DNA of 64,000 bases, taken from contig CP129469.1 of NCBI GenBank assembly GCA_030583665.1, forward strand, positions 2,905,043-2,969,042, written 5' to 3'. This DNA is from Candidatus Jettenia sp. AMX2 (GTDB lineage: Bacteria; Planctomycetota; Brocadiia; Brocadiales; Brocadiaceae). A program made the translations under genes and the position numbers. Positions 32,854-46,719 of this stretch are shown in pieces. The number at the start of each line of letters is the position of its first letter. Positions within the stretch are counted from its first letter, which is position 1. The notes under the pieces were generated by a model. That model did no database searches and was not told the DNA's origin. It was given only the letters and a program-made list of their open reading frames with translations.

Positions 32854-33003
32854 GAATAACCTCTTTTGATGCGTATTTCAAAATAATATTTGTTGTTAAT
32901 CATTGTATACTGGTATTCAGTATAAGACATCCTCATATAAAATCAATCAAACATTTTGGAAATATTCTAACACTTTTCTAACAAACTATCCAAAAACAAC
33001 AGG

Positions 33004-33052
33004 TAAGGCTTTGCTGCTTAATAGCGATAAAATCATTATTAGCAAAGCCTTA
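33004..33052. repeat. Inverted repeat inside the tRNA-flanked segment
   Basis: Perfect 12-bp arms (TAAGGCTTTGCT at 33004-33015 and its complement at 33041-33052) around 25 bases. No T-run follows, so it is not an obvious terminator. It may be a remnant of a mobile element end. Confidence 0.6.
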
Positions 33053-33088
33053 CTTCTTACAGGTTGTTCTTGGTTATGTTTCAAATTT

Positions 33089-33135
33089 GGCTCATAATCC
33101 GGAGGTCGTGGGTTCAAATCCCACCCCCGCTACCA
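33089..33135 (+). repeat. Duplicated 3' part of tRNA-fMet (probable attachment site)
   Basis: 47 bases from the anticodon arm to CCA identical to 32422-32468 except for one C-to-T change at 33098, extending two bases past CCA. The 5' half of the tRNA is missing, so this is not a functional tRNA. It is the classical footprint of site-specific integration into a tRNA 3' end. It is followed by its own terminator. Confidence 0.88.
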
Positions 33136-33145
33136 ATAAAATCAA

Positions 33146-33177
33146 GGGGTTGCAGCGAATGCTGTAGCCCCTTTTTT
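33146..33177 (+). terminator. Terminator following the tRNA fragment
   Basis: An 11-bp stem with two G-U pairs (33146-33156 with 33161-33171), GAAT loop, then six T. It may be the original terminator of the tRNA, separated from it by the insertion. Confidence 0.85.
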
Positions 33178-33181
33178 GTTA

Positions 33182-33519
33182 GATTGCGCTAAATTTGAAC
33201 CAAATTTCATTAGACATTTAGCCGCTTTCTTTTCGAGAAGGACAGTTATTGAAGATACTTTGTAATAACGTATCCAGGTTTATCATAGAGAGATTCATAG
33301 TACAAAGCAGCCTTCGGTTATTTTGCTTGACTATAAAATTGAACAGGCTAAAATCTTTCCATGAGCTCATAAAATTATCGATGTCGTAATGAGTTACACC
33401 TACACTAAGGAAACGTTTTGAGATTAAAATAATTTGATTATTTTAAAAATACACTATTTATCCGGTAAGTAGTTTTTGGACTGTATAGCGAGCCAACGAT
33501 CTACACAAATATCAAGTAA
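33182..33519. other. 338-base stretch without a recognisable gene
   Basis: AT-rich, stop-dense in all frames; no RNA gene, terminator or clear promoter found. It separates the tRNA fragment from the helicase pseudogene and may contain decayed mobile DNA. Confidence 0.5.
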
Positions 33520-34622
33520 ATGCAAATAACACCATATCACGCTAAATATTTTGCATTTGAACTAACAAAACATAACTCATCTGATAGTTTACAAAAATTG
33601 GCTTCCTCTCTTTTAGATGCTCAAGTTGATTTAAACCCACATCAGGTTGAGGCTGCTTTATTTGCATTCCGCTCACCGCTTTCTAAAGGTGCAATATTGG
33701 CAGATGAGGTAAGACTTGGTAAAACAATTGAAGCCGGACTGGTTATTTCACAAAAATGGGCTGAGAGAAAGAGAAAATTTATAATCATTGTACCAGCACA
33801 TCTTTGCAAGCAATGGAACCAGGAACTATCAGAGAAGTTTTTTCATACTTCCATTATTTTGGAGGCATCTTCCTTTAATCAGGAAATTAAAAAAGGAAAC
33901 TTAAACCCTTTTGACCAGAAAGAGATCATCATTTGCTCTTATCACTTTGCAAGGGCAAAAGACGCTTATATCAAGAAAATTAATTGGGATTTAGTAGTTA
34001 TTGATGAGGCTCATCGATTAAGAAATGTTTATAAACCACAGAACAAGATTGCCAATACCATTAAAGATGCAATTGCACATGCACCAAAAGTTCTTCTCAC
34101 TGCAACACCACTTCAAAATTCTTTCTTAGAGATCTACGGATTGGTTAGCATTATTGATGATTATACCTTACCTGCCACAATAAGTCCCCTCTTGGGAGGG
34201 GATTTAGGGGTGGGTTCTCACATCAGATATCTTATAAATCACATCGCCCAAAAACACCAAGCCGAAATTCTGCAAATGAATACTGAACGTAATGCGGGTT
34301 TCTTCGATAACGAAATGGAAAAATTAGACAAATGGGCAGAAAATGTGAAAGGTAGTATGGAAATTGAATTGAAAGAATTAGATAAAGAGATAAAATGCCG
34401 TAAAACAGAAGCAAAAAAATCCTGAATCTTGAGGAAAAGGTACAGGCACATCGGCTGATAAAAGAAATTGAAAAAAAGCGTAATACCTTACGGCTGAACC
34501 TATACCAATCACAGGATGAGGTAGATAACAGGAAAGAAGGGCTGATAGATCAGATAGAGGCACGCTTAAAACAAAAGGTTGAAAAATCAGATTTATTCAC
34601 AATTAGATGGAAACTTATTTAA
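33520..34622 (+). pseudogene. SNF2-type helicase, internally deleted and frameshifted
   Basis: The first ~225 codons are a SNF2/RapA-like helicase start: the Q-like segment LNPHQVEAALFAF, Walker A LADEVRLGKTIEAGLV (the usual DEVGLGKT has Gly changed to Arg), VIDEAHRLRN and LLTATPLQNS. Then a palindromic repeat encodes LLGGDLGVGS, and the frame jumps to a C-terminal piece, so the second helicase domain (motifs IV-VI) is missing. After residue 301 a run of seven A breaks the frame; adding one A restores LEEKVQAHRLIKEIEKKR up to LFTIRWKLI, the usual end of these helicases, at 34622. Total remaining ~370 residues against ~950 in intact relatives. Confidence 0.85.
34182..34217. repeat. Palindromic repeat inside the helicase pseudogene
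   Basis: The core reads CCCCTCTTGGGAGGGGATTT and then AGGGGTGGGTT, the same sequence family as 41217-41251. It sits exactly at the junction where the helicase middle is missing, so it may have promoted or healed the deletion. Confidence 0.8.
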
Positions 34623-34688
34623 AATGCCGATAATGTAAGATAATAAATGATGAGAACTTTTATTGATAGTAGGGTGAGTTAGCTATAG

Positions 34689-34798
34689 ATATCGTTGGCC
34701 CTCGGTATGCTGATTTGCTGAGACCCTCAAGTAGGAGATGTATAACAGAACCAATGGTTGCTTGTCCAAAATGTTAGACCGAGATTAAACTAATGGTG
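34689..34798 (+). pseudogene. Degenerate copy of the DUF2130 gene start
   Basis: About 110 bases resembling 36440-36545 (GATATxGTTG..., then ATGxxAACAGAACC(A/C)ATG..TTGTCC(A/G)AAxTG), including the zinc-finger-coding TGTCC..TG segment, but with stops and frameshifts. It encodes nothing useful and documents a duplication that placed the AlbA-like gene between two copies. Confidence 0.6.
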
Positions 34799-34842
34799 AC
34801 CTTGTATGATAAAACTAGATAACCCGTTTAGAAGAACCAAAA

Positions 34843-36304
34843 ATGGAAAATAACCAATCAATTATTGAAAAACTTATTTCATGGGATGAGAACATATCCT
34901 TTGAGACAAAGCGTGTTTCAGGCAAAATGGTGCGAAAAGCACTGGAAACCATTGTTGCCTTTGCAAATACAGAGGGCGGTTTTTTGGTTTTAGGGATTGA
35001 GGATTTCAAAGGCAAAAGGAACCGATCGTCTCATAGGCATCCATGAGAATGCTGAAGCTGTTGATGAACTCAGACAAAAAGTACAGCACCAAATTGTTCC
35101 TCCTATAGATGATCTTACATGGACGTCTCTCAATTGTAGGCTTTACGACGGTAATCCTGGAGAGATTGTTATTATCGAAGTTATGAAGAGTCCGAAAGTG
35201 CATTCCATTATTGAAGATGGTACATGGAAGCGTCTCGATAAAGGTAATCGTGAGATGACCGCTTCCGAAATTAATGAACTTTGCTTCTCAAGGGGCGTAA
35301 TTAGTGCAGAGAATGAACTCGTGGATGTTCCATTTGAATTACTTTATACCAATTCATGGAAAACTTACTGCGAAAACAGAGGGATTAGTTCAGGCGACAT
35401 TAAGGATAGAATGTTCAGAACTGGCTTGGCACGAAAAAAAAGTGACGTAGTATTACCTACAAAAGCTGCTATTCTTTGTTTTGCAGAAGATCCTTCAGGC
35501 ATTTTATCTTCAAAAACCGCTGTGAGAGTGTTTCATTATGCTGGAACACGTATTGAGCACGGAGCAATTCCTAATCTGTTAAAGCAACCTAAAACGATTA
35601 CTGGACCGTTGATAAAACAAATTGCCGATGCATATGCATACGTAATTAATGAAATAGCAAAAGGTCTGATTCTTGCAAAGTCAGGATTTGAAACAGTGCA
35701 TCGGTATCCGACACGAGTAATCAGAGAAGCGATAACTAATGCCGTTATTCACAGAGACTATCATATAAACAGGGATATTTATATAAAGATTTTTGATAAT
35801 CGCATAGAAGTGGAAAGCCCCGGACTCTTTCCCGGAAATATCACGGCAGAGACCATTGAGTTCGCAGGTTCATTCAGCCGTAATCCTCTTATTGTAAACT
35901 GTCTTAGGGAATTTCCCGAACCACCTAATATCGATGCCGGAGAAGGAGTGAGAATGATGTTTGCAACCATGCGCTTACAGGGACTTTATCCTCCGTTCTA
36001 TTTTTCGCGGAGAGATTCAATAGTTGTCTTATTGCTCAATGAAGAACGACCTCCAATATGGGAACAGGTCAGCAACTGGATTGACCGGAACGGATCTATT
36101 ACAAACGGTCAATTGTGTAGAATTGCTTCTGTTGATACGCTGAAAGCCTCAAAAATGCTTAAGAAGTGGGTTGACATGGAAATGCTTGAAGTGGACATGA
36201 GCAAAGGCAAGAAAAATGCAAGCTATCGAAAAGCTGGTTCAGTAACACAGAGAAAATTTATTGGTTTATTATCCAGTCTCTCGGATAATAAAGAAGCACC
36301 TTAG
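34843..36304 (+). pseudogene. AlbA_2 / ATP-binding regulator (COG2865-like), broken by one frameshift
   Basis: The N-terminal 55 codons (34843-35010) encode an AlbA_2 (Schlafen-like) DNA/RNA-binding domain (FETKRVSGKMVRKALETIVA, FANTEGGFLVLGIED). The frame then shifts by one base near 35005-35015; the second frame (34997-36304) continues without gap as AKGTDRLIGIHENAEAVDEL. The C-terminal part has a GHKL-like ATPase segment (NAVIHRDYHINRDIYIKIFD, IEVESPGLFPGNI) and a winged-helix tail. Restoring one base gives about 486 residues, normal for the family. These proteins are common in defence islands. The shift could be genuine or a sequencing error, since the rest is intact. Confidence 0.8.
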
Positions 36305-36384
36305 TTGTAATTTCAACTTTAACAAAGACTTACAGCATAACTTATTATCCTGTACGAGAAATAATAAGGTTGAACTGTAAAGGT

Positions 36385-36440
36385 ATATGGTGAAAACCAA
36401 GGATTAGAACTCACATGGATAGGGAAGGAAAACCAGTTAT
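36385..36440 (+). pseudogene. Fossil N-terminus of a DNA methyltransferase (copy 1)
   Basis: Reading in one frame, LELTWIGKENQ matches residues 8-18 of the intact methyltransferase starting at 40106 (LELTWIGKDNQ). The DNA also matches (GAACTCACATGGATAGG). The homology stops after about 45 bases and runs into the DUF2130 fragment. No function. Confidence 0.6.
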
Positions 36441-36494
36441 GGATATAGTTGCTCTTTGGAATGCCGATTTATTGAGATTCTTAGGGAGAGGCTT

Positions 36495-36640
36495 ATGACA
36501 GAACCCATGATTACTTGTCCGAAGTGCGCGACTGAAATCAAACTAACTGAATCACTTGCAGCGCCGATGATCGAATCAATACGGGGTGAGTATGAACAAC
36601 GATTGATCCAGAAAGATGCAGATATTGCCAGGCCGGAATG
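36495..36640 (+). pseudogene. DUF2130 protein N-terminus, truncated by the IS element
   Basis: The start MTEPMITCPKCATEIKLTES is the zinc-ribbon beginning of DUF2130 proteins; about 49 codons remain before the left end of the insertion sequence at 36641 takes over. A full protein has over 350 residues. The rest is absent: on the other side of the IS an unrelated gene continues, so the IS is linked to a deletion. Confidence 0.75.
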
Positions 36641-36681
36641 TGTCAATGAAAATTAGACATTTTTTTAAAGAATTTAGACTC

Positions 36682-37678
36682 TCACGATAGTGTATTTTCC
36701 CGTTTTGGTTGATTAATCCATGCAGCCTGTGGTAAACGTGGAGGTTCAGGTACTTTTCCCTTGAACCGTTCCGGATGTTTTTCAAAAGCGGTCTTTAACA
36801 CACGGCTTCGTTCTTTCACAATATGAGTCTGTACGTCCATAATGAACAGATTCGGGAGTAAAGAGTCCGATGCCTGAATGATAGTGTTCCGTATTGTACC
36901 AGAGAAAGAAATTCTTACAGAATATTCTGGAAGATTCAATAGAGGTAAAAAATCCAGGGAATTCAGGATGATACTTAAGGGTTTTAAACTGTGATTCAGA
37001 ATAGGGATTATCATTACTGACGTAAGGCCTGGAGTGGCTTTTTGTAATCCCCAGGTCAGAGAGCAGAAAGGCAACTGGTTTAGAAGTCATACTTGATCCC
37101 CGGTCAGCATGAATAATCAGTTGTCCAGGTTGAATACCCTGTTTGTTGGCAGTCTCACGTATCAACCTTTCAGCCAGAGCCGCTTGTTCCCTGTGTGCAA
37201 CCATCCAGCCGACCACATAGCGACTGAAGATGTCAAGGATCACATAGAGATAAAAATAACTCCATTTTGTTGGCCCTTTCAGTTTTGTGATATCCCAGGA
37301 CCATACCTGATTGGGAGCAGTTGCCAGGAGTTCAGGTTTCTGATATACGGGGTGACGTAACAGGTTTCTTCGTTCCCTTACCTCGTGGTGTTTTTCCAGG
37401 AGACGATACAGAGTTCTTACAGAACACAGATAGACCCCTTCATCCAGGAGGGTTGTATATACTTGCCGGGGAGACTTATCACAAAAACGCTCAGAGTGTA
37501 AGGTATCAAGTATGATGTGTTCCTCCGTGGGAGACAATGCCAGAGGTGGTTTTACCGTGATACGCCTTTGCTGAATATTTTTCTGGTAGTAGTAATAACT
37601 TGCCCGTGGGATGCCCAACGTTTCACAGGCATTTTTCATACGAATCTCTTTGGCAAGTGATTCAACGGCAAGCATCAT
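36682..37678 (-). pseudogene. IS3-like transposase orfB with a late frameshift
   Basis: An integrase-type DDE transposase. The catalytic residues are visible: WSWDITKLKG (first Asp), IIHADRGSSMTSK (second Asp), and NDNPYSESQFKTLK (Glu). The frame from 37678 ends early at 36782 with an unrelated tail; in the next frame the natural C-terminus (HIVKERSRVLKTAFEKHPER ... NQPKRENTLS) continues to 36682. One base is lost or gained near 36825-36835. The catalytic core is complete, but the C-terminus is wrong, so transposition is doubtful. The start overlaps orfA by 4 bases (ATGA). Confidence 0.85.
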
Positions 37679-38163
37679 CTGTTTTCTCCTATCAGAGTGG
37701 AATGGATATTCAACATTTCTGAGATTTTTTTTTGAATCTCGATAATGGTTTCAGCCTGTTTGAGCCTTTGCTGAAGAGAATTAATTTCGCATTCAAGTTC
37801 TTTGATACGTCGTGCTGCCGGATCAGATTTTTTCTCCTTTGGTCCGCGTCGTTTTGGAGAAAGCGCCTCCAGGGTGCCACGTTCCAGTTGACGGCGCCAG
37901 GTAGTGAGATTAGACGAATAAAGACCTTCCCTTCTCAAGAGTGCTCCAATCTGCCCGAGATTTGTGCAGGCATCGGCCTCCCGAAGGATGCGAATCTTAT
38001 ACTGTGCAGTAAACTTACGTCTTGCTGCTTTTTCTGACACCTCTGGGTCGGGGACACAATTGCCAGCAGGAGCGTTGGTGGAACCTCCGTTCGCCCTACG
38101 GGCTCTCTCCGGTTCCACCAACGCTTGTAAAGTATTTTCTTTGCTTTTCTCATTATTTTTCAT
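37675..38163 (-). CDS. IS3-like transposase orfA
   Basis: A 162-residue helix-turn-helix protein that recognises the IS ends. KFTAQYKIRILREADACTNL and GALLRREGLYSSNLTTWRRQ are the HTH of IS3-type OrfA; a leucine-zipper-like stretch (LECEINSLQQRLKQAETIIE) follows. The first ~50 residues contain an unusual insert (RRANGGSTNAPAGN). It overlaps orfB. Confidence 0.82.
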   Translation of the reverse strand: MKNNEKSKENTLQALVEPERARRANGGSTNAPAGNCVPDPEVSEKAARRKFTAQYKIRILREADACTNLGQIGALLRREGLYSSNLTTWRRQLERGTLEALSPKRRGPKEKKSDPAARRIKELECEINSLQQRLKQAETIIEIQKKISEMLNIHSTLIGENR

Positions 38164-38226
38164 AGTTGTTTTCCTCCTCGCCCTACACTAAACTATTACA
38201 AGGAAAATGTCCAACTATTATAGACA

Positions 38227-38967
38227 CTGAGGGGTATCTTAGACCTTGGCGATTTACGGACACAATCTGGTACGCACTGCTTCAAGACAACGTTGAGTTC
38301 CGGAGACCGAAGCGCTCTGGCGTTAGCATTCTTTCTGGCAGCAGTGAAACAGGATGGGAAAATTGGAAACAAGATAATCGTGCTGGATGATCCCTTTACA
38401 AGTCAAGACCGTTTTCGGCGCACCTGCACTCAACAGCTGATCCGCCAACTTGCTGGTACAGCTAAGCAGGTTATTGTTTTATCCCATGATCCTCACTTTT
38501 TAAGACTCATCTGGGAAGGTTATCCCGCAACTGACATTAAGGTACTTCAATTGTACCGTACCGGAGACAACACGATCATTGGAGAGTGTGACATCGAAGC
38601 CGAAACCCAATCAACTTACTTGAAGAACTATTCCTCACTACTTAATTTTTATCGAGAACGGAAGGGTACAACTTTGGATGTGGCGCGTTCAATCCGTCCT
38701 TTCGTTGAGGGAATGCTTCGTGTCCATTTCCCAAGTCACTTTCAAAGGAATGAATGGCTCGGCGATTTCATCGATAAGATTCGGAATACTGACAACACAA
38801 ACAGCCTTTCCCATGCAAAGGCAGATCTGGCCGAAATTGAAGCGATAAATGACTACTCCAAGAAATACCATCACGACCAAAATCCAAACGCGGACACCGA
38901 GCCATTGTCTGCAGATGAATTGCATGGATTCGTAAAAAGAACACTTCGGTTAGTTGGAGGAGCTTAG
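38227..38967 (+). pseudogene. AAA_13 / RloC-like ATPase, C-terminal part only
   Basis: The frame is open from the very edge of the IS (38227) without a start codon: ILDLGDLRTQSGTHCFKTTL. It then gives the ABC signature TLSSGDRSALALAFFLA, Walker B IIVLDDPFTSQD and the H-loop VIVLSHDPHF. This is the C-terminal ATPase half of AAA_13 proteins, of which the anticodon nuclease RloC is the best-known member. The N-terminal ATPase half and coiled coils were removed by the IS-linked deletion. It could be translated only from an internal ATG near 38293 and would lack Walker A. Confidence 0.82.
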
Positions 38968-39033
38968 AAATGAAAGACATAAAAAATTATCTTAGTAACT
39001 GATTGAATCTATAAAATCTGAGGAGTTGAGTTA

Positions 39034-39160
39034 ATTGACCAATAAAGCCCAAAAAAGTGAACTTATATGGATAGGCAAGGATGACCAGCCGAAGTCGCTG
39101 ATTGAAGGTCCGGAAAAGTCTTATACGCACTGCATTGTTTGAGAAGGGAAGATGGTTTCG
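39034..39160 (+). pseudogene. Fossil N-terminus of a DNA methyltransferase (copy 2)
   Basis: LTNKAQKSELIWIGKDDQPK, then SLIEGPEKSYTH, matches the first 35 residues of the intact methyltransferase (MTNKNQKLELTWIGKDNQPK...). A stop follows after about 29 codons. It starts 66 bases after the ATPase remnant and is followed by the cyclase-like gene, so an earlier methyltransferase once stood in the same place. Confidence 0.72.
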
Positions 39161-39237
39161 ACAATCGGCTGATATTTGATGACAACATGCACACATGAAC
39201 TTAGTAGTCGATTATAGACAATTAGGGTTACGACGCT

Positions 39238-40131
39238 ATGACAAATAACAACAAGGTTGTTTTGTTTATTGATGTTCTCGGATTTGCCGCATTAACAGAG
39301 GCATACCCAATTGATATTGATCTTTTAAAGATGTGTGGCAGACCGCTTTCATGCGCACACAATATCGACAAGATTCTTGCAATACCCCGCAACCGATTGA
39401 TCGATACATTTACAAGTTTTCACTATTCACTGGCGGCAACGCTTAACCTTGCTAATATGAGTCATCCCTTGACTGCCATTACATTCTCTGATTCGGCGTT
39501 TATTGCAACAACGTACGCATATGAAGCTGTAAACATTGCAATTGACCTACTTCACAGTCTGCTTCCGCAGAAAATACCAGTGCGAATGGGAATCGCTTGT
39601 GGAACATTTGCTGCACTCAGATTCAAATCTGATATTATGTCAGACGGTGGAGACCACGCAGCCCAATTCCTTGGAACGGCCATAGTGCGCGCTCATGCTG
39701 CCGAAACCTGTGGCACTAAGGGACTCAGAATCTTGCTCCACCCTTCACTTATACCCCTGTTCGATGACAGTCGCCATAACCCTGGGTCCTCTGACGGGAA
39801 GCATCCAATACGTTACCTTGAGTGTTCAGAAAGAGAGCGAACGAACAATAAGATCGGCGTCCACCATGAAATCGACTACTGGCATCTAAAACCCACACGC
39901 GAAGCCGATGCATGGCACGCGTTTCAAGACATGTGGAATGAAGCACCACAATCTGTATATGAGCACTACGAGGCAACCGCTGAAGCTATTAATCGAATGA
40001 GGATTGCCCAAGGACATGAGCCGTTAAACAATTTGCGACGTCGCACTCTGCCGCGAGCAAGTCGTAATTTGGGTAAAAATGTATCTCGTTGCTTTACAAA
40101 TGTCTATGACAAACAAAAACCAAAAACTTGA
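39238..40131 (+). CDS. Class III nucleotide-cyclase-like protein
   Basis: A 297-residue single-domain protein with the motif order of class III nucleotidyl cyclases: LFIDVLGF (metal Asp at residue 12), ITFSDSAFI (second Asp at 84), PVRMGIACGTF (115-123) and FLGTAIVRAHAAE (143-155), equivalent to FxDxxGFT, GDxxM, RxGIxxG and GxxVNxAxRLE. No signal peptide, receiver or membrane helix is seen. Substrate-specifying residues cannot be assigned by eye, so cAMP, cGMP, cCMP and cUMP are all possible, and it may be catalytically dead. The gene sits directly upstream of the methyltransferase, whose start lies inside its 3' end (26-base overlap). No cyclic-nucleotide-binding effector is adjacent. Confidence 0.6.
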   Translation: MTNNNKVVLFIDVLGFAALTEAYPIDIDLLKMCGRPLSCAHNIDKILAIPRNRLIDTFTSFHYSLAATLNLANMSHPLTAITFSDSAFIATTYAYEAVNIAIDLLHSLLPQKIPVRMGIACGTFAALRFKSDIMSDGGDHAAQFLGTAIVRAHAAETCGTKGLRILLHPSLIPLFDDSRHNPGSSDGKHPIRYLECSERERTNNKIGVHHEIDYWHLKPTREADAWHAFQDMWNEAPQSVYEHYEATAEAINRMRIAQGHEPLNNLRRRTLPRASRNLGKNVSRCFTNVYDKQKPKT

Positions 40132-41857
40132 ACTCACATGGATAGGCAAGGATAACCAGCCGAAGCTGGAGCCGCGGATATTGATTGAAGATCCGGAGAG
40201 GTCTTACGGCGATAAGAACAGTAGCAGCATGCTTATCTACGGTGATAATCTTCTTGCTCTCAAGGCACTTGAGCAGGACTTTGCAGGAAAGATAAAATGC
40301 ATTTATATAGACCCGCCATTCAATACAGGGAGTGCATTTAAATATTATGATGATGGTTTAGAACATTCAATTTGGTTAGGTATGATGAGAGACAGATTAT
40401 GTCTATTACGCAGTCTTCTTGCTAATAACGGAGCAATCTTTGTTCACATAGACTACAATGAAGAAGCATATTTAAGGGTTATTATGGATGAAATTTTTGG
40501 ACGCAAGAATTTTAGAAATACGATAATTATATCTCGTATAAAAAAGAATATTAGGGAACGAGAAAAGGTAAAGGCCTTAAATTATGCTCATGATGTTATA
40601 GTGTTTTATGCAAAAAGTGACGATTGTTTTGTTCTTCCTCCAACAAAATCTGTTGAGAGAAGGGAAAGATGGCATGCCTTTGATGCACCGGGGATAAGAC
40701 CAACTATGGAGTATGAACTTTTTGGGCATCGTCCTCCAGCAGGAAGACATTGGCTTTATGACAAAAATCGTGCAAAGACACTAATAGATAGTGGAGACCT
40801 TCGTTCAAATCCAAGAACGGGTAAACCACAATATAGGATTCCTTCTGGCACAGAGGATATTTGTGATACCTTATGGATAGATATTACTGCTTCATCATTT
40901 AAATGGAATTTCCCAAGTGGAGAAAAGAATGAAAAACTTATTCAACGTATTCTGGAAATGTCTACAATAGAAGGTGATTTTGTTCTTGATTCTTTCCTTG
41001 GCTCGGGTACAACCGCCGCAGTTGCTCATAAAATGAACCGAAGGTGGATAGGCATTGAGCTTGGTGAGCATTGCCATACCCATTGCCTGCCGCGATTGAG
41101 AAAGGTTGTTGACGGTACGGATCAGGGTGGAATATCAAAAATTGTACACACCCCTAACCCCTATCGAAAGGGGAATGAACCCACCCCTAACCCCTCCCAA
41201 GAGGGGAATAAAGAAAGTCCCCTCCCCGGAGGGGATTTAGGGGTGGGTTGGCAAGGCGGCGGTGGCTTCAAATATTACTACTTAGCCCCAAGTCTGTTGA
41301 AAAAGGATAAACACAACAATTGGATAATAGATGAACGTTATAATGCCGATATGCTTGCAGCAGCTATGGCAAAACATGAAGGCTTTAGATACTGCCCGGA
41401 CGAACATATTTACTGGAAACATGGTCGTTCAACTGAAAAAGATTATATATTTACCACAACGCAGTTCGTTACGGTACAGTTTTTAGATAAGATTCATGAA
41501 GAAATGAGATTAGACGAAAGCCTTCTGATTTGTTGTAAATCTTTCCAAGAAGCTTGTGAAAATCGTTACGCTAACATCACCATAAAAAAGATTCCCAAGA
41601 TGTTACTTGGCAGATGTGAATTTGGAAAAGAAGATTATAGTCTGAATATAGTCAATTTGCCGGTTGATTCAGAACCTACCACTGATCCCTACCGGGAAGG
41701 GGACTTGAAGAAGAATCTCACCAAAGTGGAAAATAAAGAAGAACTTGAGCAATCAAATCCTCCTATTTTCCAATCGTCAAAGGGAAGTAATAGACACACG
41801 AGGAAAATGAAAGGACAAAAAAGCCTTTTTCCAGAGAAAGAAGCAAATGAAGGATAG
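40106..41857 (+). CDS. Beta-class adenine DNA methyltransferase (type III Mod-like)
   Basis: A 583-residue SAM-dependent DNA methyltransferase. Start at 40106 (MTNKNQKLEL) is chosen because two fossil copies nearby begin at the same point. The catalytic motif DPPFNTG comes first (residues 69-75) and the SAM loop FLGSGTTAA later (about 297-305), the beta-class order of type III Mod enzymes. The recognition region between them is short. Residues ~348-382 are encoded by a cluster of palindromic repeats (PNPSQEGN, LPGGDLGVGW) and residues ~525-535 by a fourth degenerate copy, so part of the protein is repeat-derived. Its end overlaps yhcG by 11 bases. Confidence 0.85.
   Translation: MTNKNQKLELTWIGKDNQPKLEPRILIEDPERSYGDKNSSSMLIYGDNLLALKALEQDFAGKIKCIYIDPPFNTGSAFKYYDDGLEHSIWLGMMRDRLCLLRSLLANNGAIFVHIDYNEEAYLRVIMDEIFGRKNFRNTIIISRIKKNIREREKVKALNYAHDVIVFYAKSDDCFVLPPTKSVERRERWHAFDAPGIRPTMEYELFGHRPPAGRHWLYDKNRAKTLIDSGDLRSNPRTGKPQYRIPSGTEDICDTLWIDITASSFKWNFPSGEKNEKLIQRILEMSTIEGDFVLDSFLGSGTTAAVAHKMNRRWIGIELGEHCHTHCLPRLRKVVDGTDQGGISKIVHTPNPYRKGNEPTPNPSQEGNKESPLPGGDLGVGWQGGGGFKYYYLAPSLLKKDKHNNWIIDERYNADMLAAAMAKHEGFRYCPDEHIYWKHGRSTEKDYIFTTTQFVTVQFLDKIHEEMRLDESLLICCKSFQEACENRYANITIKKIPKMLLGRCEFGKEDYSLNIVNLPVDSEPTTDPYREGDLKKNLTKVENKEELEQSNPPIFQSSKGSNRHTRKMKGQKSLFPEKEANEG
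41149..41251. repeat. Three palindromic repeat units inside the methyltransferase gene
   Basis: Units 1 and 2 run head to tail (CACCCCTAACCCCT...AGGGGAA at 41149-41176 and 41180-41210) and unit 3 (41217-41251, GGAGGGGATTTAGGGGTGGG) is inverted. Each can form a hairpin. All remain in frame with the gene: 103 bases are translated without a stop. A degenerate fourth unit is at 41682-41712. Confidence 0.85.
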
Positions 41858-42887
41858 TTCTGTGCCCACAATTGAACAGACATATAAAAGCATAAAGACA
41901 GTTCTCGAAAAGGCACGGTCTAAATCTTTCAAAGCTGTTAATACTGCGATGGTACGGGCATACTGGCATGTTGGTAAAATTATTATAGAAGGTGAACAGA
42001 AAGGTAAACAGCGGGCTGAATATGGCGCGTATCTTATCGAAGAGCTTGCTAAAAGACTGACGGTTGAATACGGTCAGGGATTTAACAAAACCAATCTCTG
42101 GTACATGAGACAGTTTTATCTTACCTTCCAGAATCTCCACGCACTGCGTGGAGAATTGACATGGACACATTACAGATTGTTGTTAAAAATAGAAAAGCCA
42201 GAAGCCCGTGAATTTTATATAAAAGAAACCATTGCGAGCAACTGGAGTACAAGAGAGCTTGAGAGGCAGATAAATTCCCTGCTTTTTGAACGGCTTGCAT
42301 TGAGCAGGGATAAGAAAGGAGTACTCGAACTTGCAAATAAGGGTCATCATATTGCCGCCCCTTCAGATATTGTAAAAGACCCCTATGTGCTTGAGTTCCT
42401 GGGCTTAGAGAAACATGAGAAGTATTTGGAAAAGGACATCGAGCAGGCATTGATAGATAAGCTTCAGAAATTTTTGCTTGAACTTGGCAAGGGCTTTTCA
42501 TTTGTTGCCCGGCAACAGCGCATCACTCTTGATGGAGACCATTTCTATATCGATCTTGTTTTCTATAACAGACTTACACGTTGTTTTGTGCTGATAGACC
42601 TGAAAGTAGGGAAACTGACTCATCAGGATATCGGACAGATGCAGATGTATGTCAATTATTATAAAAGAACCCAGATGGTAGAGGGAGAAAACGAACCTAT
42701 CGGTATACTCCTTTGTGCCGAGAAAAATAATGCTGTTGTAAAGTTCACATTACCGGAAGGACAAAAGCAGATATACATTTCCAAATATATCCCTTATCTG
42801 CCTACAGAAGAAGAGTTAAGGACTGAAATTTTGCGTGAAAAAGAGTTGATCGAATTGGAAATAAAACTGAGCAAGGACAAAAAATGA
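41847..42887 (+). CDS. YhcG/DUF1016 family PD-(D/E)XK nuclease
   Basis: A 346-residue DUF1016 protein. The N-terminal domain (YWHVGKIIIEGEQKGKQRAE, GFNKTNLWYMRQFYLTF) is typical, and the C-terminal nuclease fold shows GDHFYIDLVFYNRLTRCFVL, then IDLKVG (the D...(D/E)XK element) and IGQMQMYVNYYKR. Members have been associated with restriction and phage-defence loci. It overlaps the methyltransferase by 11 bases and the helicase by 4 (ATGA), so translation of the three is coupled. A third nuclease-type protein in one restriction operon is unusual. Confidence 0.88.
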   Translation: MKDSSVPTIEQTYKSIKTVLEKARSKSFKAVNTAMVRAYWHVGKIIIEGEQKGKQRAEYGAYLIEELAKRLTVEYGQGFNKTNLWYMRQFYLTFQNLHALRGELTWTHYRLLLKIEKPEAREFYIKETIASNWSTRELERQINSLLFERLALSRDKKGVLELANKGHHIAAPSDIVKDPYVLEFLGLEKHEKYLEKDIEQALIDKLQKFLLELGKGFSFVARQQRITLDGDHFYIDLVFYNRLTRCFVLIDLKVGKLTHQDIGQMQMYVNYYKRTQMVEGENEPIGILLCAEKNNAVVKFTLPEGQKQIYISKYIPYLPTEEELRTEILREKELIELEIKLSKDKK

Positions 42888-45565
42888 ATCGTATAGCCAT
42901 GGCAATTAAAAATCGCTTAAGTCTTCGCCTACCGCAGGCAGATAGTCTCAATATGCTAGCAGAGTTGACTGATAAACTGACCCTTCAGAAAAATGGCGAT
43001 TTATCTATTGCACTAGAAATAGTCAAAAATGCCTATCCTACCTGTACCGATTTTGAGAGAAATTTCCCGTCAATTTGTTTTTCGCTGGCCACCGGGGTTG
43101 GCAAGACCCGACTTATGGGGGCTTTCGTAGTTTACCTGTATTTGTCAAAAGGCATGAGAAACTTTTTTGTTTTGGCTCCCAATATCACCATTTATAACAA
43201 ATTGATTGAAGATTTCTCCAATCCCACCAGTCCAAAATATGTATTTCAGGGTATCGGTGAGTTTGTTCACAGACAACCACATATTATTACAGGCGATAAT
43301 TATAACGAAATTCGTCAGACAAAAATGTTCAAATCTGATATCCATATCAGCATTTTTAATATATCCAAGATAAATGCCGAAACGAAAGGTGGCAAACTTC
43401 CACGCGTAAAAAGGCTTTCAGAATACCTGGGTGATTCTTATTTTAATTACCTCGCCGGTCTTGATGATCTGGTTTTGTTGATGGACGAATCTCATCATTA
43501 CCGTGCAGACAGGGGGATGCAGGTTATTAATGAATTAAACCCGATTTTAGGATTAGAAGTTACAGCTACTCCACAGATAGAACGAAGCGGAGGTACTATC
43601 AAATTTAAAAATGTCGTCTATGAATATTCGTTAGCTAAAGCTATTCAAGATGGATTTGTAAAGGAACCAGCAGTAGCTACCAGAAAGGATTTCAATCCTG
43701 CACAATACTCCAATGAAGAATTGGATAGAATAAAACTGGAAGACGGTATACGAATTCATGAAGACACGAAAGTAGCGTTGGATATTTACGCAAGGAATAG
43801 TAAGGAAAAACGGGTCAAGCCGTTTGTATTGGTTGTTGCTCAGCATACAGAACATGCAAATGACCTGAAAAAGTTAATAACCTCAAGTTCATTCTTTCAT
43901 GGTGATTATGCAGATAAGGTAATGGAGATTCATTCGAATCAGTCCGGGGAAGAAAAAGATGAGAATATTGAGAAGTTGATTTCTTTAGAAAATCCTGAAA
44001 ACAAGATAGAAATTGTAATCCACGTTAACATGTTAAAAGAGGGCTGGGACGTAACGAATCTTTACACAATCATCCCCCTGCGGACAGCGACATCATTGAC
44101 CTTACGAGAACAAACTATTGGTAGAGGGCTACGATTGCCTTATGGGAAAAGGACGGGAAACGACAAAGTAGATAAATTGACGATTGTAGCTCATGATAAA
44201 TTCCAGGAAATAGTAGATGGGGCAAATAAACCTGATTCTATCATTAATCGGCAAAATATTATTGTAATTGATACACAAGAATTAAATGAGCAAAAAGAAG
44301 TTATTACCTCTGTTTCAAGCATTGAACAGAAGTTCGAAGAGGAACAAAAAAGGATAAATAATATTACTGAACCGGAAAGCAGGCAGAAAGCACTGATCAA
44401 TCTGGAGCTACAAAAGACGATCCTTTCAACCCTTCCGGAAATGAGCAATGCAGTTAAAAATGTTCATGAATTAACGAGGTTTGAAATTAAACAGATCGCA
44501 TTAGAGAAGATAAAACAGAAGATTTATAGTTCTCCGCAAAAAAATTTATTTGCCGCAGAGATGGTAAAGGAGGTTGAAGCTGCATATGAAACGGTAGTAA
44601 ATGAGTTTGTAAGAAATATTATAGAAATTCCACGGATTACTATCCAACCAGGTAATGAAATAAAGTCTGGCTTCAGGGATTTTAATCTGGACACAAAAAG
44701 TCTTAATTATCAGCCAGTATCGGAAGAAATATTAATAAGGAAACTTCGCGAGCAGGAGAACTGCCTAGAAATTCTGAATGGGATAGACAAAGGGAGAATT
44801 ATCATTGATAAGCCTGAGAATCTCATAGTGAATGAGCTTGTGAACTATCCGGAAATAGATTACGATACACAAGCGGATTTGTTATTTAGATTAGCACAAC
44901 AAGCTGCCGGAAAATTCAAAACATATCTTGATGATAATATGTGTATGAACGTTGTCCAGTATCATAAAAAAGAAATTGGAAAGTATATTCATTCACAGTT
45001 AATGCAACATTTTTATTATGAAGCACCGGGCTATGAAAAACCTGTTGTAAAGCCATTTACAAGGATTGAAGAACATAACTTTTCAAAATATACAAAAGAC
45101 AGCATGCATCATTTTACAGAAACAATTACTCCAACAAGTGCCATTCCTGGTAAAGTATTTAGTGGTTTTAGAAAGGCTTGTCATAACCTGTATAAGTTTG
45201 ATTCTAAAACAGAGAAGGATTTTGCCTCTATCTTAGAGCAAGATAAGTCTGTCCTTAAGTGGATGAGGCCGGCTTTGAATCAATTCATGATATATTGGAA
45301 GCACAATTCGAAACAATACATTCCCGATTTTGTTGTGGAGACTGTTGATTCAATTTATATGGTGGAAACAAAAAAAGAGGGAGATATCGAATTAACGGAT
45401 ATTAAAGAAAAAGCTCAAGCAGCCTATCAATATTGTAAGTATGCGACTGAATATACCAATCAAAATGGAGGAAAACCATGGAAATATATCTTGATTCCCC
45501 ACAATGCGATAATGATAAATATGGGTTTTGTAACACTTGTGATGATGTATGAGTATCATCAATAA
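42884..45565 (+). CDS. Type III restriction-type helicase-nuclease (Res-like)
   Basis: An 893-residue superfamily 2 helicase fused to a nuclease. Walker A ATGVGKTRLM near residue 69, DEAD-box variant LLMDESHHYRAD near 200, motif III EVTATPQIE, motif VI REQTIGRGLRLPYGKR near 405. The C-terminus carries a PD-(D/E)XK pattern, YIPDFVVETVDSIYMVETKK, near residues 810-830. Together these match Res subunits of type III systems. It starts four bases before the end of the nuclease gene, completing a Mod-YhcG-Res operon. No promoter was identified; the operon probably begins upstream of the cyclase-like gene. Confidence 0.88.
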   Translation: MNRIAMAIKNRLSLRLPQADSLNMLAELTDKLTLQKNGDLSIALEIVKNAYPTCTDFERNFPSICFSLATGVGKTRLMGAFVVYLYLSKGMRNFFVLAPNITIYNKLIEDFSNPTSPKYVFQGIGEFVHRQPHIITGDNYNEIRQTKMFKSDIHISIFNISKINAETKGGKLPRVKRLSEYLGDSYFNYLAGLDDLVLLMDESHHYRADRGMQVINELNPILGLEVTATPQIERSGGTIKFKNVVYEYSLAKAIQDGFVKEPAVATRKDFNPAQYSNEELDRIKLEDGIRIHEDTKVALDIYARNSKEKRVKPFVLVVAQHTEHANDLKKLITSSSFFHGDYADKVMEIHSNQSGEEKDENIEKLISLENPENKIEIVIHVNMLKEGWDVTNLYTIIPLRTATSLTLREQTIGRGLRLPYGKRTGNDKVDKLTIVAHDKFQEIVDGANKPDSIINRQNIIVIDTQELNEQKEVITSVSSIEQKFEEEQKRINNITEPESRQKALINLELQKTILSTLPEMSNAVKNVHELTRFEIKQIALEKIKQKIYSSPQKNLFAAEMVKEVEAAYETVVNEFVRNIIEIPRITIQPGNEIKSGFRDFNLDTKSLNYQPVSEEILIRKLREQENCLEILNGIDKGRIIIDKPENLIVNELVNYPEIDYDTQADLLFRLAQQAAGKFKTYLDDNMCMNVVQYHKKEIGKYIHSQLMQHFYYEAPGYEKPVVKPFTRIEEHNFSKYTKDSMHHFTETITPTSAIPGKVFSGFRKACHNLYKFDSKTEKDFASILEQDKSVLKWMRPALNQFMIYWKHNSKQYIPDFVVETVDSIYMVETKKEGDIELTDIKEKAQAAYQYCKYATEYTNQNGGKPWKYILIPHNAIMINMGFVTLVMMYEYHQ

Positions 45566-46020
45566 GATTCATTATCGAAATTTGATAAAATATTGATAGA
45601 GAGAAATAGAAATTTTTGCAAACGAAATAATAAAGGCAAAGAAAAGATTAATGCAAAAGGGGTAATTATATCTATTGGAGAGTAAAAGGGTCACATCTTA
45701 AATATTCAGTTTTAATCTTTTTTGCCTCTATTTTTATAAAAACTCAGGTAGCGTCCAATTACAATTAATACTTAATTTTTAAGATGTGACTCTCTTTCTC
45801 TGATATATTCTATTTTCAAGGTCTGACCCTAAACACTCATTTAAGATGTGTCCCTCTGACCCACTTAGAATTTAGTAGACCCTAATTAATAAAAAGTGTT
45901 CATTTTTTAAAATACGAGTAAAAAATTGAACACTATAGAGGTTGGTTGACTTTCCTAAACTAAATTGTGATAATTAAAAAAGATTTTAGATAATTAGTTC
46001 GCAATATTGGAGATGAGTAG
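45566..46020. other. 455-base gene-free stretch with inverted repeats
   Basis: No gene is seen. Perfect 13-bp arms GTCACATCTTAAA (45690-45702) and its complement (45778-45790) enclose 75 bases, and a third half-site TTTAAGATGTG lies at 45840-45850, giving a composite of palindromic fragments. It may be the remains of a small mobile element; direct evidence of transposition is lacking. The last 60 bases are AT-rich and should contain the HicB promoter. Confidence 0.55.
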
Positions 46021-46224
46021 ATGAAAATTCAAGTAATTTTAGAACCAAGCAATGAAGGTGGGTTTACAGCAATTGTTCCATCACTTCCCGGCTGTATAAG
46101 TGAAGGCAATACCAAAGAGGAAGCATTAAAAAATATTAGAGAAGCCATTGAACTCTATCTCGAACCAGTCGATGATGATCAGAGGTTTACTCCAAATGCA
46201 CAGGTCTTAGAAATTTCCTTATGA
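46021..46224 (+). CDS. hicB: HicB-family antitoxin (pair 1)
   Basis: A 67-residue HicB protein that binds HicA and its own promoter. The partial RNase H fold is visible as GGFTAIVPSLPGCISEGNTK followed by EEALKNIREAIELYLE. It lacks a separate DNA-binding tail, as in short HicB forms. It overlaps the HicA frame by 4 bases (ATGA). No disruption seen. Confidence 0.85.
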   Translation: MKIQVILEPSNEGGFTAIVPSLPGCISEGNTKEEALKNIREAIELYLEPVDDDQRFTPNAQVLEISL

Positions 46225-46478
46225 CAAAAGTTCCGAGTTTGAATTACGGGCAGGTTATCAATGCTTTACATCGTGATGGATGGGTTATTGTTCGTCAAAA
46301 AGGTAGTCACATACGTTTACAAAAACATGCAATGGAAAAAACGTTAAAACTTACAGTTCCAGCCCACAATCCTATAAAGAGGTCTACACTCTGGTGTTGT
46401 TTTCTCATCCAATTTGAATTGGCTTCCAACAAATGCAAACATCCAAGCCATAGTCCTGAAAAGCTGTCTATCCTGTAA
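46221..46478 (+). CDS. hicA: HicA-like toxin with foreign C-terminus (pair 1)
   Basis: The first 57 residues are HicA, an mRNA interferase of the dsRBD fold: NALHRDGWVIVRQKGSHIRL contains the active-site His in GSH, and KLTVPAHNPIKRSTL is the usual end of the core. From position 46392 the sequence no longer resembles HicA (missing the final helix), and an unrelated tail of 28 residues follows. The active site is present, so partial function is possible, but the missing helix and replaced tail suggest a damaged toxin. Classified as coding because the frame is open. Confidence 0.65.
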   Translation: MTKVPSLNYGQVINALHRDGWVIVRQKGSHIRLQKHAMEKTLKLTVPAHNPIKRSTLWCCFLIQFELASNKCKHPSHSPEKLSIL

Positions 46479-46719
46479 ATAAGCGCCTGTTCCGAATCAC
46501 GCCCGGTGTGATCCGCTCCCGGTTCAGGAAAATCAAAGATATACACATCCCTCAAGGCAATCAAAATCCTTCGGAATGGTCATAAAAATCCCAAATGTAA
46601 AATTTATTGCCTATAGCATCAAGAGTAGTATATAATTTGAAATATTTCTTTTATTGATACCTCTTAATTCATTCACCTATTTAAAGTAAAATCAACCCTT
46701 TTAAAAAGGAAGATTGATT

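What the first reader, a model, noticed from the sequence alone, without database searches (positions are those of the whole stretch)
39238..45565. Cyclase-like gene translationally tied to a Mod-YhcG-Res operon
Four intact genes overlap by 26, 11 and 4 bases: a class III nucleotide-cyclase-like protein, a beta-class adenine methyltransferase, a DUF1016/YhcG nuclease and a type III Res helicase-nuclease. They are the only undamaged defence genes in a graveyard of broken ones, which suggests selection. Cyclic-nucleotide signalling is established in Pycsar defence, and YhcG and type III systems are known separately; the combination as a single coupled unit is, to my knowledge, not a described system. 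The cyclase could supply a signal that licenses or restrains the nucleases.
Basis: partly seen in the sequence, partly recalled or inferred. Interest (0 to 1): 0.78.

Follow-up and report, generated by a model that had tools for sequence, protein, structure and literature searches.

The report
Cyclase-fold gene beside a restriction operon
A bacterial restriction operon carries an unusual gene whose protein is predicted to fold like an enzyme that makes cyclic-nucleotide signals, but comparison with other genomes suggests this gene is one of many that come and go at that spot, so the two are probably neighbours rather than one new machine.

Summary
Observation confirmed: four open genes at 39238-45565 overlap by 26, 11 and 4 bases. 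The 297-residue protein has no Pfam, NCBIfam or PADLOC match, but an AlphaFold2 model (37 sequences, pLDDT 80) matches adenylate/guanylate cyclases (VIA Z 16.7), and both predicted metal aspartates are kept in 37 of 37 sequences. The cyclase fold is supported; the single coupled system is not. Mod, DUF1016 and Res belong to a locus type, published as a type III subgroup, with a helicase ahead of Mod (broken here) and changeable accessory genes. None of 40 other Res stretches carries the cyclase; about eight show under 1 kb ahead of Mod. Of six other genomes examined that hold a relative, one (L002) shows it by Mod, and there Mod is a remnant while the cyclase is open (dN/dS 0.17). L002 shares the flanking Mod remnants, so it is one event. 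Best reading: a stand-alone cyclase-fold accessory gene acquired ahead of Mod, probably read with it but acting apart. Activity and product are unknown. Neighbours of several relatives look weakly nuclease-like, which keeps a bolder reading open.

The parts
39238..40131 (+). Class III cyclase-fold protein (297 aa); D12 and D85 are the predicted metal-binding aspartates; the tail after about residue 268 is mostly low-confidence and not shared by L003, L004 or L061
40106..41857 (+). Type III Mod, beta-class amino-methyltransferase (alternative start 40079); holds an in-frame repeat at about 41146-41249
41847..42887 (+). DUF1016/YhcG PD-(D/E)XK nuclease (PADLOC candidate PDC-S02)
42884..45565 (+). 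Type III Res helicase-nuclease
33520..34619 (+). Remnant of the SNF2 (DrmD-like) helicase of this locus type: residues 1-217 and 812-964 of a 964-aa relative, middle deleted, end out of frame
34840..36304 (+). Accessory gene (RecG C-terminal-like domain; AlbA_2-type by eye), frameshifted near 35007
36392..36436 (+). Orphan remnant of a Mod start (first scar)
38293..38967 (+). Fragment of an AAA_13 / PDC-S06-like accessory gene
39035..39180 (+). Orphan remnant of a Mod start just ahead of the cyclase (second scar; 39035-39124 by tblastn, the rest by eye); the same remnant precedes the cyclase in L002

Best explanation
[quoted passage not shown] Mod and Res do ordinary type III restriction (inferred from families). 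DUF1016/YhcG is a recurrent nuclease accessory between Mod and Res (recurrence shown, role inferred). The cyclase-fold gene is a later arrival ahead of Mod: it lies between a truncated copy of a Mod 5' end and the real one, and orphan Mod starts also lie among the accessory genes of other loci of this type. It is probably read together with Mod, and its close spacing may help Mod be translated, but its product most likely acts on its own: a class III cyclase-fold protein with the metal-binding aspartates kept (fold and residues shown by model and alignment; activity, product and partner unknown). That it works apart from Mod/YhcG/Res is inferred from its neighbours elsewhere and from its survival in L002 where Mod is a remnant.
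For: Fold: AF2 with 37 sequences pLDDT 80.1, pTM 0.78; 83 PDB chains at Foldseek E<=0.001, best soluble guanylate cyclase 3uvj_B E 1.5e-7; VIA Z 16.7, 2.9 A over 174 residues, all 50 rows shown being adenylate or guanylate cyclases; D at both aspartate columns in 37 of 37. Locus type: 7 of 7 opened plasmid records (of 34 with a match) read SNF2 - 0 to 4 listed genes - Mod - Res, Mod being interrupted by an IS element in one; SNF2 or its remains in 10 of 20 stretches from the phylum of G295 and 7 of 12 same-family stretches; published helicase-like ATPase 5' of mod in over 500 genomes (PMC8259958 Discussion). Turnover: slot genes include a reverse transcriptase, AAA, DUF4276, AIPR (annotations) and, by eye, AlbA_2-, SIR2- and RhuM-like genes ahead of Mod, and DUF559, DUF1016 and, by eye, Fic-, nucleotidyltransferase- and RelE-like genes after Mod. 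Scars: of twelve 45-codon segments of Mod (540 of 583 codons), the first is the only one, apart from the in-frame repeat segment, found in extra copies: window 3, L052, L053, L055 two each, L002 two without a Mod body. Independence: L061-L065 show no Mod/DUF1016/Res nearby; 0 of 40 Res stretches carry a cyclase; L002 keeps an open cyclase (dN/dS 0.17 against the window copy over 283 codons) while only a short Mod start remains, and no Res at E<=1e-20 was found in that genome.
Against: In L002 cyclase and Mod overlap as ATGA, so the pairing predates the split of the two copies (88.8% DNA identity). Two of three unlinked close carriers (G295 and G301, not G296) have a Res of this clade elsewhere in the genome, against 20 of 398 and 2 of 68 in background samples that include G295 and G301 themselves (binomial P about 0.007; post hoc, tiny n, draft genomes), which would fit a partnership in trans. 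Genes near four other relatives are weakly nuclease- or defence-like: PD-Lambda-4_A-like by L061, HNH_2 E 9.1e-4 by L064, PDDEXK_5 E 0.0047 by L065, pPIWI_RE_REase E 0.0054 by L062 on the other strand (the three Pfam hits are below Pfam's cut-offs), so a cyclase-nuclease pairing with changing nucleases is not excluded. About eight of the 40 Res stretches show under 1 kb ahead of Mod. SNF2 is absent from several stretches with 5 kb or more ahead of Mod (L049, L050, L209, L211, L228). The L002 genome is a 2.8-Mb draft, so absence of Res there is weak; dN/dS averages over time before Mod was lost.
Confidence: 0.62

Rival explanations
1. One reading: the four genes are one defence system, the cyclase making a nucleotide signal that licenses or restrains YhcG and Res.
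For: Tight gene overlaps; cyclase fold and kept metal aspartates; cyclase-Mod ATGA overlap in a sister copy; weak co-occurrence in trans; weakly nuclease-like neighbours of other relatives.
Against: No independent recurrence seen: 0 of 40 Res stretches, 0 of 5 other cyclase loci. In L002 the cyclase outlives Mod. No cyclic-nucleotide-binding domain was reported for Mod, DUF1016 or Res at E<=1 in Pfam.
Confidence: 0.12
2. A Pycsar-like signalling enzyme whose receptor/effector lies elsewhere in the genome or has been lost; the gene is a stranded half-system parked in a defence locus.
For: Same fold class as PycC, both metal aspartates kept; one relative (L061) lies downstream of a PD-Lambda-4_A-like gene (E 4.1e-22); another (L063) has an N-terminal hydrophobic stretch by eye.
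Against: No TM or TIR effector was recognised among the neighbours scanned (not every neighbour was scanned); no PADLOC match at E<=1 for 7 members; the metal aspartates are 73 residues apart here (42-77 across 37 sequences) against 44 by the residue numbers given for EaPycC and AnPycC (PMC11224242).
Confidence: 0.14
3. A catalytically dead cyclase-fold protein with a binding or structural role, or a passenger with no defence role that survives through linkage.
For: By the recalled class III motif, the transition-state Asn and Arg are not at the expected places (V150 and A154; column counts).
Against: Purifying selection (dN/dS 0.17); F10, D12 and D85 in 37 of 37, S84 and R116 in 36 of 37.
Confidence: 0.1

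Closest known systems
Type III R-M subgroup with an extra helicase-like ATPase 5' of mod (Eco86II, BspHIV; PMC8259958)
   Same: Locus type has a SNF2-type helicase gene ahead of Mod, then Res; Mod with DPPF motif (by eye); Res with helicase and nuclease regions
   Different: In the window the helicase is broken, a DUF1016 nuclease lies between Mod and Res, and a cyclase-fold gene ahead of Mod; recognition site and m4C/m6A chemistry unknown; sequence relation to Eco86II itself was not tested
Pycsar (PycC pyrimidine cyclase plus PycTM/PycTIR effector)
   Same: Class III cyclase fold, small single-domain protein, two metal aspartates, in a defence locus
   Different: No adjacent TM or TIR receptor; no PADLOC match; longer spacing between the aspartates; product unknown
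phrog_23933 (phage proteins of unknown function)
   Same: P0001 itself matches it (E 7.9e-5), as do 6 of 7 close-family members and 5 of 5 wider-family members; motif series FxDxLGF, FSD, R.G, E
   Different: Window protein is a divergent bacterial branch, 14-26% identical to the viral-contig members in A7
DISARM class 1 (DrmD helicase)
   Same: The SNF2 gene of this locus type is closest to a DrmD model (PDLC02619, E 1.9e-211 for L052)
   Different: Type III Mod and Res follow it; the other DISARM genes were not searched for

Membership tests
Type III restriction-modification system | Mod: amino-methyltransferase with type III family match | tested here: met
   PF01555 E 1.9e-40; MTase_III PDLC03636 E 5.4e-163
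Type III restriction-modification system | Res: SF2 helicase plus PD-(D/E)XK nuclease next to Mod | tested here: met
   ResIII E 8.4e-21, REase_III PDLC03648 E 9.9e-184; RE_endonuc only weak (E 0.011, below cut-off); PDF...ETKK seen by eye
Type III subgroup with 5' helicase-like ATPase | Intact helicase gene 5' of mod | tested here: not met
   Helicase present only as a remnant, 33520-34619; whole in relatives, e.g. L052, 964 aa. So the window is described as a decayed relative, not an intact member
Class III nucleotide cyclase fold | Structural match to solved class III cyclases | tested here: met
Class III nucleotide cyclase fold | Two metal-binding aspartates | tested here: met
   D in 37 of 37 at both columns; position inferred from motifs, no residue-level superposition
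Active class III nucleotide cyclase | Transition-state Asn/Arg pair (recalled motif) | tested here: inconclusive
   V150 and A154 at the expected columns by a gapless reading
Active class III nucleotide cyclase | Makes a cyclic nucleotide | not testable with these tools
   needs enzyme assay
Pycsar | PycC-family cyclase sequence | tested here: inconclusive
   No PADLOC match at E<=1 for 7 members; that PADLOC 2.0.0 holds PycC models is recalled, not checked
Pycsar | Adjacent TM or TIR effector with cyclic-nucleotide-binding domain | tested here: not met
   Window neighbours are Mod, DUF1016, Res and an AAA_13 fragment
YhcG/DUF1016 nuclease | DUF1016_N plus YhcG_C domains | tested here: met

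The most novel reading that the evidence does not exclude
An unnamed family of class III cyclase-fold proteins (FxDxLGF...FSD...R.G), found in viral contigs, bacterial genomes and defence loci and without a Pfam match in the members scanned, is a signalling enzyme family of phage-host conflict that pairs with changing nucleases; in this operon it makes a nucleotide that controls the accessory nuclease YhcG or Res, giving a type III restriction system a second-messenger switch.
Probability: 0.12. Interest if true: 0.8.

Novelty: new variant of a known kind. Interest (0 to 1): 0.37.

Why it matters
As a system the finding shrinks: it is most likely a type III restriction locus with a rotating accessory gene. 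What gains is the accessory gene itself: a divergent member of a family filed as 'unknown function' in PHROGs is predicted with good confidence to have the class III cyclase fold with its metal site kept. If active, it would add cyclic-nucleotide chemistry to phage-bacterium conflict beyond Pycsar. The locus also hints at how type III operons swap parts, leaving copies of the Mod start as scars.

Tried and rejected
Sequence-only evidence for a cyclase: PF00211 over the own genome found only a different protein; P0001 has no Pfam, NCBIfam or PADLOC match, one of 7 close-family members touches PF00211 at E 0.13; PDB by sequence gives adenylate cyclases only at E 0.55-2.3, mixed with unrelated chains, and nothing useful for L062 or L063 alone. 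The first AF2 model, with 4 sequences, was useless (pLDDT 46); the second, with 37, was used.

Plasmid and phage tblastn for P0001: no match at E<=0.01. Viral contigs with P0001, A1, A2 or A4: no confirmed relative; A3, A5 and A6 found members of the wider family. BFVD fold search: one row at E<=0.001. PycC chains are not among the 50 rows shown by either PDB fold search; that excludes nothing.

A recent direct-repeat insertion of the cyclase: rejected, because the two Mod starts flanking it are only 75% identical over 100 bases and both flanks are shared with L002.

Rfam on 33000-46500: nothing. Promoter-like sites not above shuffles (27 against 22.7, sd 5.1); terminator-like sites 11 against 5.2 (sd 2.0), 8 of them on the minus strand, the first inside the repeat of Mod; not interpreted.

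Literature searches: no listed title or start of abstract describes a cyclase with Mod-DUF1016-Res; the library holds open-licence papers only, so this is no proof of absence. Papers: PMC8259958 its Discussion and passages; PMC11224242, PMC1189080, PMC12839542, PMC10853773, PMC11341870, PMC1913061, PMC9519451 passages only; all others search listing only.

Full report
WHAT IS THERE. The four open frames and their overlaps are as described. Family searches give type III Mod, DUF1016/YhcG and type III Res with strong E-values. The 297-residue product has no match in Pfam, NCBIfam or PADLOC and only noise-level hits to adenylate cyclases by sequence in the PDB.

IS IT A CYCLASE FOLD. A first model from four sequences failed. 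From distant relatives I reached a wider family in viral contigs with the motif series FxDxLGF, FSD, R.G and a conserved E. Its members match phrog_23933, of unknown function, and so does P0001 itself (E 7.9e-5; 6 of 7 close-family members). With 37 sequences the model of P0001 has pLDDT 80.1 and pTM 0.78. Foldseek ranks soluble guanylate cyclase first (E 1.5e-7; 83 chains at E<=0.001). VIA-align, a second look at Foldseek's own matches, gives Z 16.7, 2.9 A over 174 residues, and all 50 rows shown are adenylate or guanylate cyclases. Both expected metal aspartates (D12, D85) are D in 37 of 37 sequences. Against full activity: the recalled transition-state Asn and Arg do not sit at the expected columns, and the aspartates are 73 residues apart here (42-77 in the family) against 44 by the residue numbers given for two PycC proteins. 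The tail (268-279 and 281-294) is low-confidence and not shared by L003, L004 or L061.

WHAT THE OPERON IS. Relatives of Res occur in 19 of 33 genomes searched in the family, 20 of 398 in the phylum of G295 and 2 of 68 in the phylum of G296. In 7 of 7 plasmid records opened the order is SNF2 helicase, 0-4 listed genes, Mod, Res; in the Aeromonas record an IS element interrupts Mod. The window holds the same helicase as a remnant at 33520-34619, closest to a DrmD model. SNF2 or its remains appear in 7 of 12 same-family stretches and 10 of 20 from the phylum of G295; some of the rest are cut by contig ends, but L049, L050, L209, L211 and L228 show 5 kb or more ahead of Mod without it. A published type III subgroup has a helicase-like ATPase 5' of mod in more than 500 genomes, and a partly purified Eco86II preparation cut DNA without that protein being detected (PMC8259958). 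That it is the same family as this SNF2 gene is inferred from position and type. So Mod and Res may work without the broken helicase.

ACCESSORY TURNOVER. Genes ahead of Mod and between Mod and Res differ from locus to locus. DUF1016 lies between Mod and Res in the window and L226, in L051 (behind a DUF559 gene, Mod cut by the contig start), before Res in L215 (contig ends before Mod), and in part or decayed in L050, L057 and L058. So Mod-DUF1016-Res recurs. Orphan copies of the Mod start lie among the accessory genes: three Mod starts in the window (36392, 39035, 40106), two each in L052, L053 and L055, two in L002. Of the twelve 45-codon segments tested (540 of 583 codons) no other but the in-frame repeat occurs in excess.

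IS THE CYCLASE PART OF IT. Profiles A2 and A7 were run over open frames of at least 60 residues in 40 fetched Res stretches (12 same-family, 7 plasmid, 20 from the phylum of G295, 1 from G301): none has a match at E<=1e-3. About eight (L051, L060, L210, L212, L215, L221, L225, L227) show under 1 kb ahead of Mod. Cyclase relatives: 1 of 294 genomes in the own phylum, the window's own (single-sequence search); 5 of 396, 1 of 399 and 3 of 398 in other samples (the centres G296 and G295 included, and only G301 a further close one); three loci from genome contigs. None of L061-L065 has Mod, Res or DUF1016 in the stretch at E<=1e-4 (L065 ends 0.36 kb past the gene).

NEIGHBOURS OF THE RELATIVES. L061 lies downstream of a PD-Lambda-4_A-like gene with one small gene between. 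The genes next to L064 and L065 on the same strand touch HNH_2 (E 9.1e-4) and PDDEXK_5 (E 0.0047), and one near L062 on the other strand touches pPIWI_RE_REase (E 0.0054); all three are below Pfam's cut-offs. The proteins scanned near L063 showed no nuclease. With Mod-DUF1016-Res in the window, this leaves open that the cyclase pairs with nucleases of changing kinds. I count it as a lead, not a result.

THE SISTER COPY. L002 matches the window over 39043-40155 at 88.8% DNA identity, including the Mod remnant ahead of the cyclase and the Mod start after it. There Mod is cut soon after its start and runs into a stretch that by eye resembles DUF1016 (not reported by tblastn at E<=1e-4), then an aminotransferase gene. 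No Res at E<=1e-20 was found in that genome. The cyclase there is open, dN/dS 0.17. In L002 cyclase stop and Mod start overlap as ATGA. So cyclase and Mod were joined once, before these copies split, and the cyclase outlived Mod.

AGAINST MY READING. Two of three unlinked close carriers have a Res of this clade elsewhere in the genome, more than the 5% and 3% of the samples (which include those two carriers); the number is tiny and the test post hoc (P about 0.007). The old ATGA overlap shows the pairing was not a one-genome accident. The weakly nuclease-like neighbours are told above.

VERDICT. Observation confirmed; cyclase fold supported by model; functional four-gene system not supported, not excluded. 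The Mod-Res part is type III R-M, a decayed relative of the subgroup with a 5' helicase and a new variant in its accessory genes. Interest is moderate and rests mostly on the cyclase-fold family.

Noticed in passing
36392-36436, 39035-39180, 40106-40240; L052:7253-7303, L053:1284-1358, L055:1943-1984, L002:314-394 and 1375-1452: Copies of the Mod 5' end, most of them orphans, punctuate the accessory-gene slot, as if Mod starts were junctions for gene exchange.
   Followed up: partly
41146-41249 and many places in L049-L059: An in-frame repeat (translated roughly as TPNPSQEGNKESPLLGGDLGVG) lies inside Mod, and in relatives inside Mod and Res genes and elsewhere, in both orientations.
   Followed up: no
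41690-41857; L051:1982-2119, L057:2993-3172: The tail of the window's Mod (residues 529-591) matches sequence lying next to DUF1016, past the DUF559 gene, in L051 and next to DUF1016 in L057, as if a DUF559 gene had been lost between Mod and DUF1016 in the window.
   Followed up: no
L084-L133 (viral contigs): A family in viral contigs (phrog_23933, unknown function) shares the cyclase motif series; it may be worth a defence or counter-defence test.
   Followed up: partly
L061:5112-10058: A cyclase 67% identical to the window's lies downstream of a 1237-residue PD-Lambda-4_A-like, possibly STAND-type gene with one small gene between, the latter overlapping the cyclase by 4 bases.
   Followed up: partly
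L064:4996-5745, L065:6575-6830, L062:3960-4496: Genes near other cyclase relatives are weakly nuclease-like (HNH_2, PDDEXK_5, pPIWI_RE_REase, all below Pfam cut-offs).
   Followed up: partly
36782-38163 (minus strand): IS3-type two-frame insertion element, apparently open, inserted among the accessory genes (identified by eye).
   Followed up: no
G295 and G301 genomes: Two cyclase carriers also hold a Res of this clade on another contig; too few to judge.
   Followed up: partly
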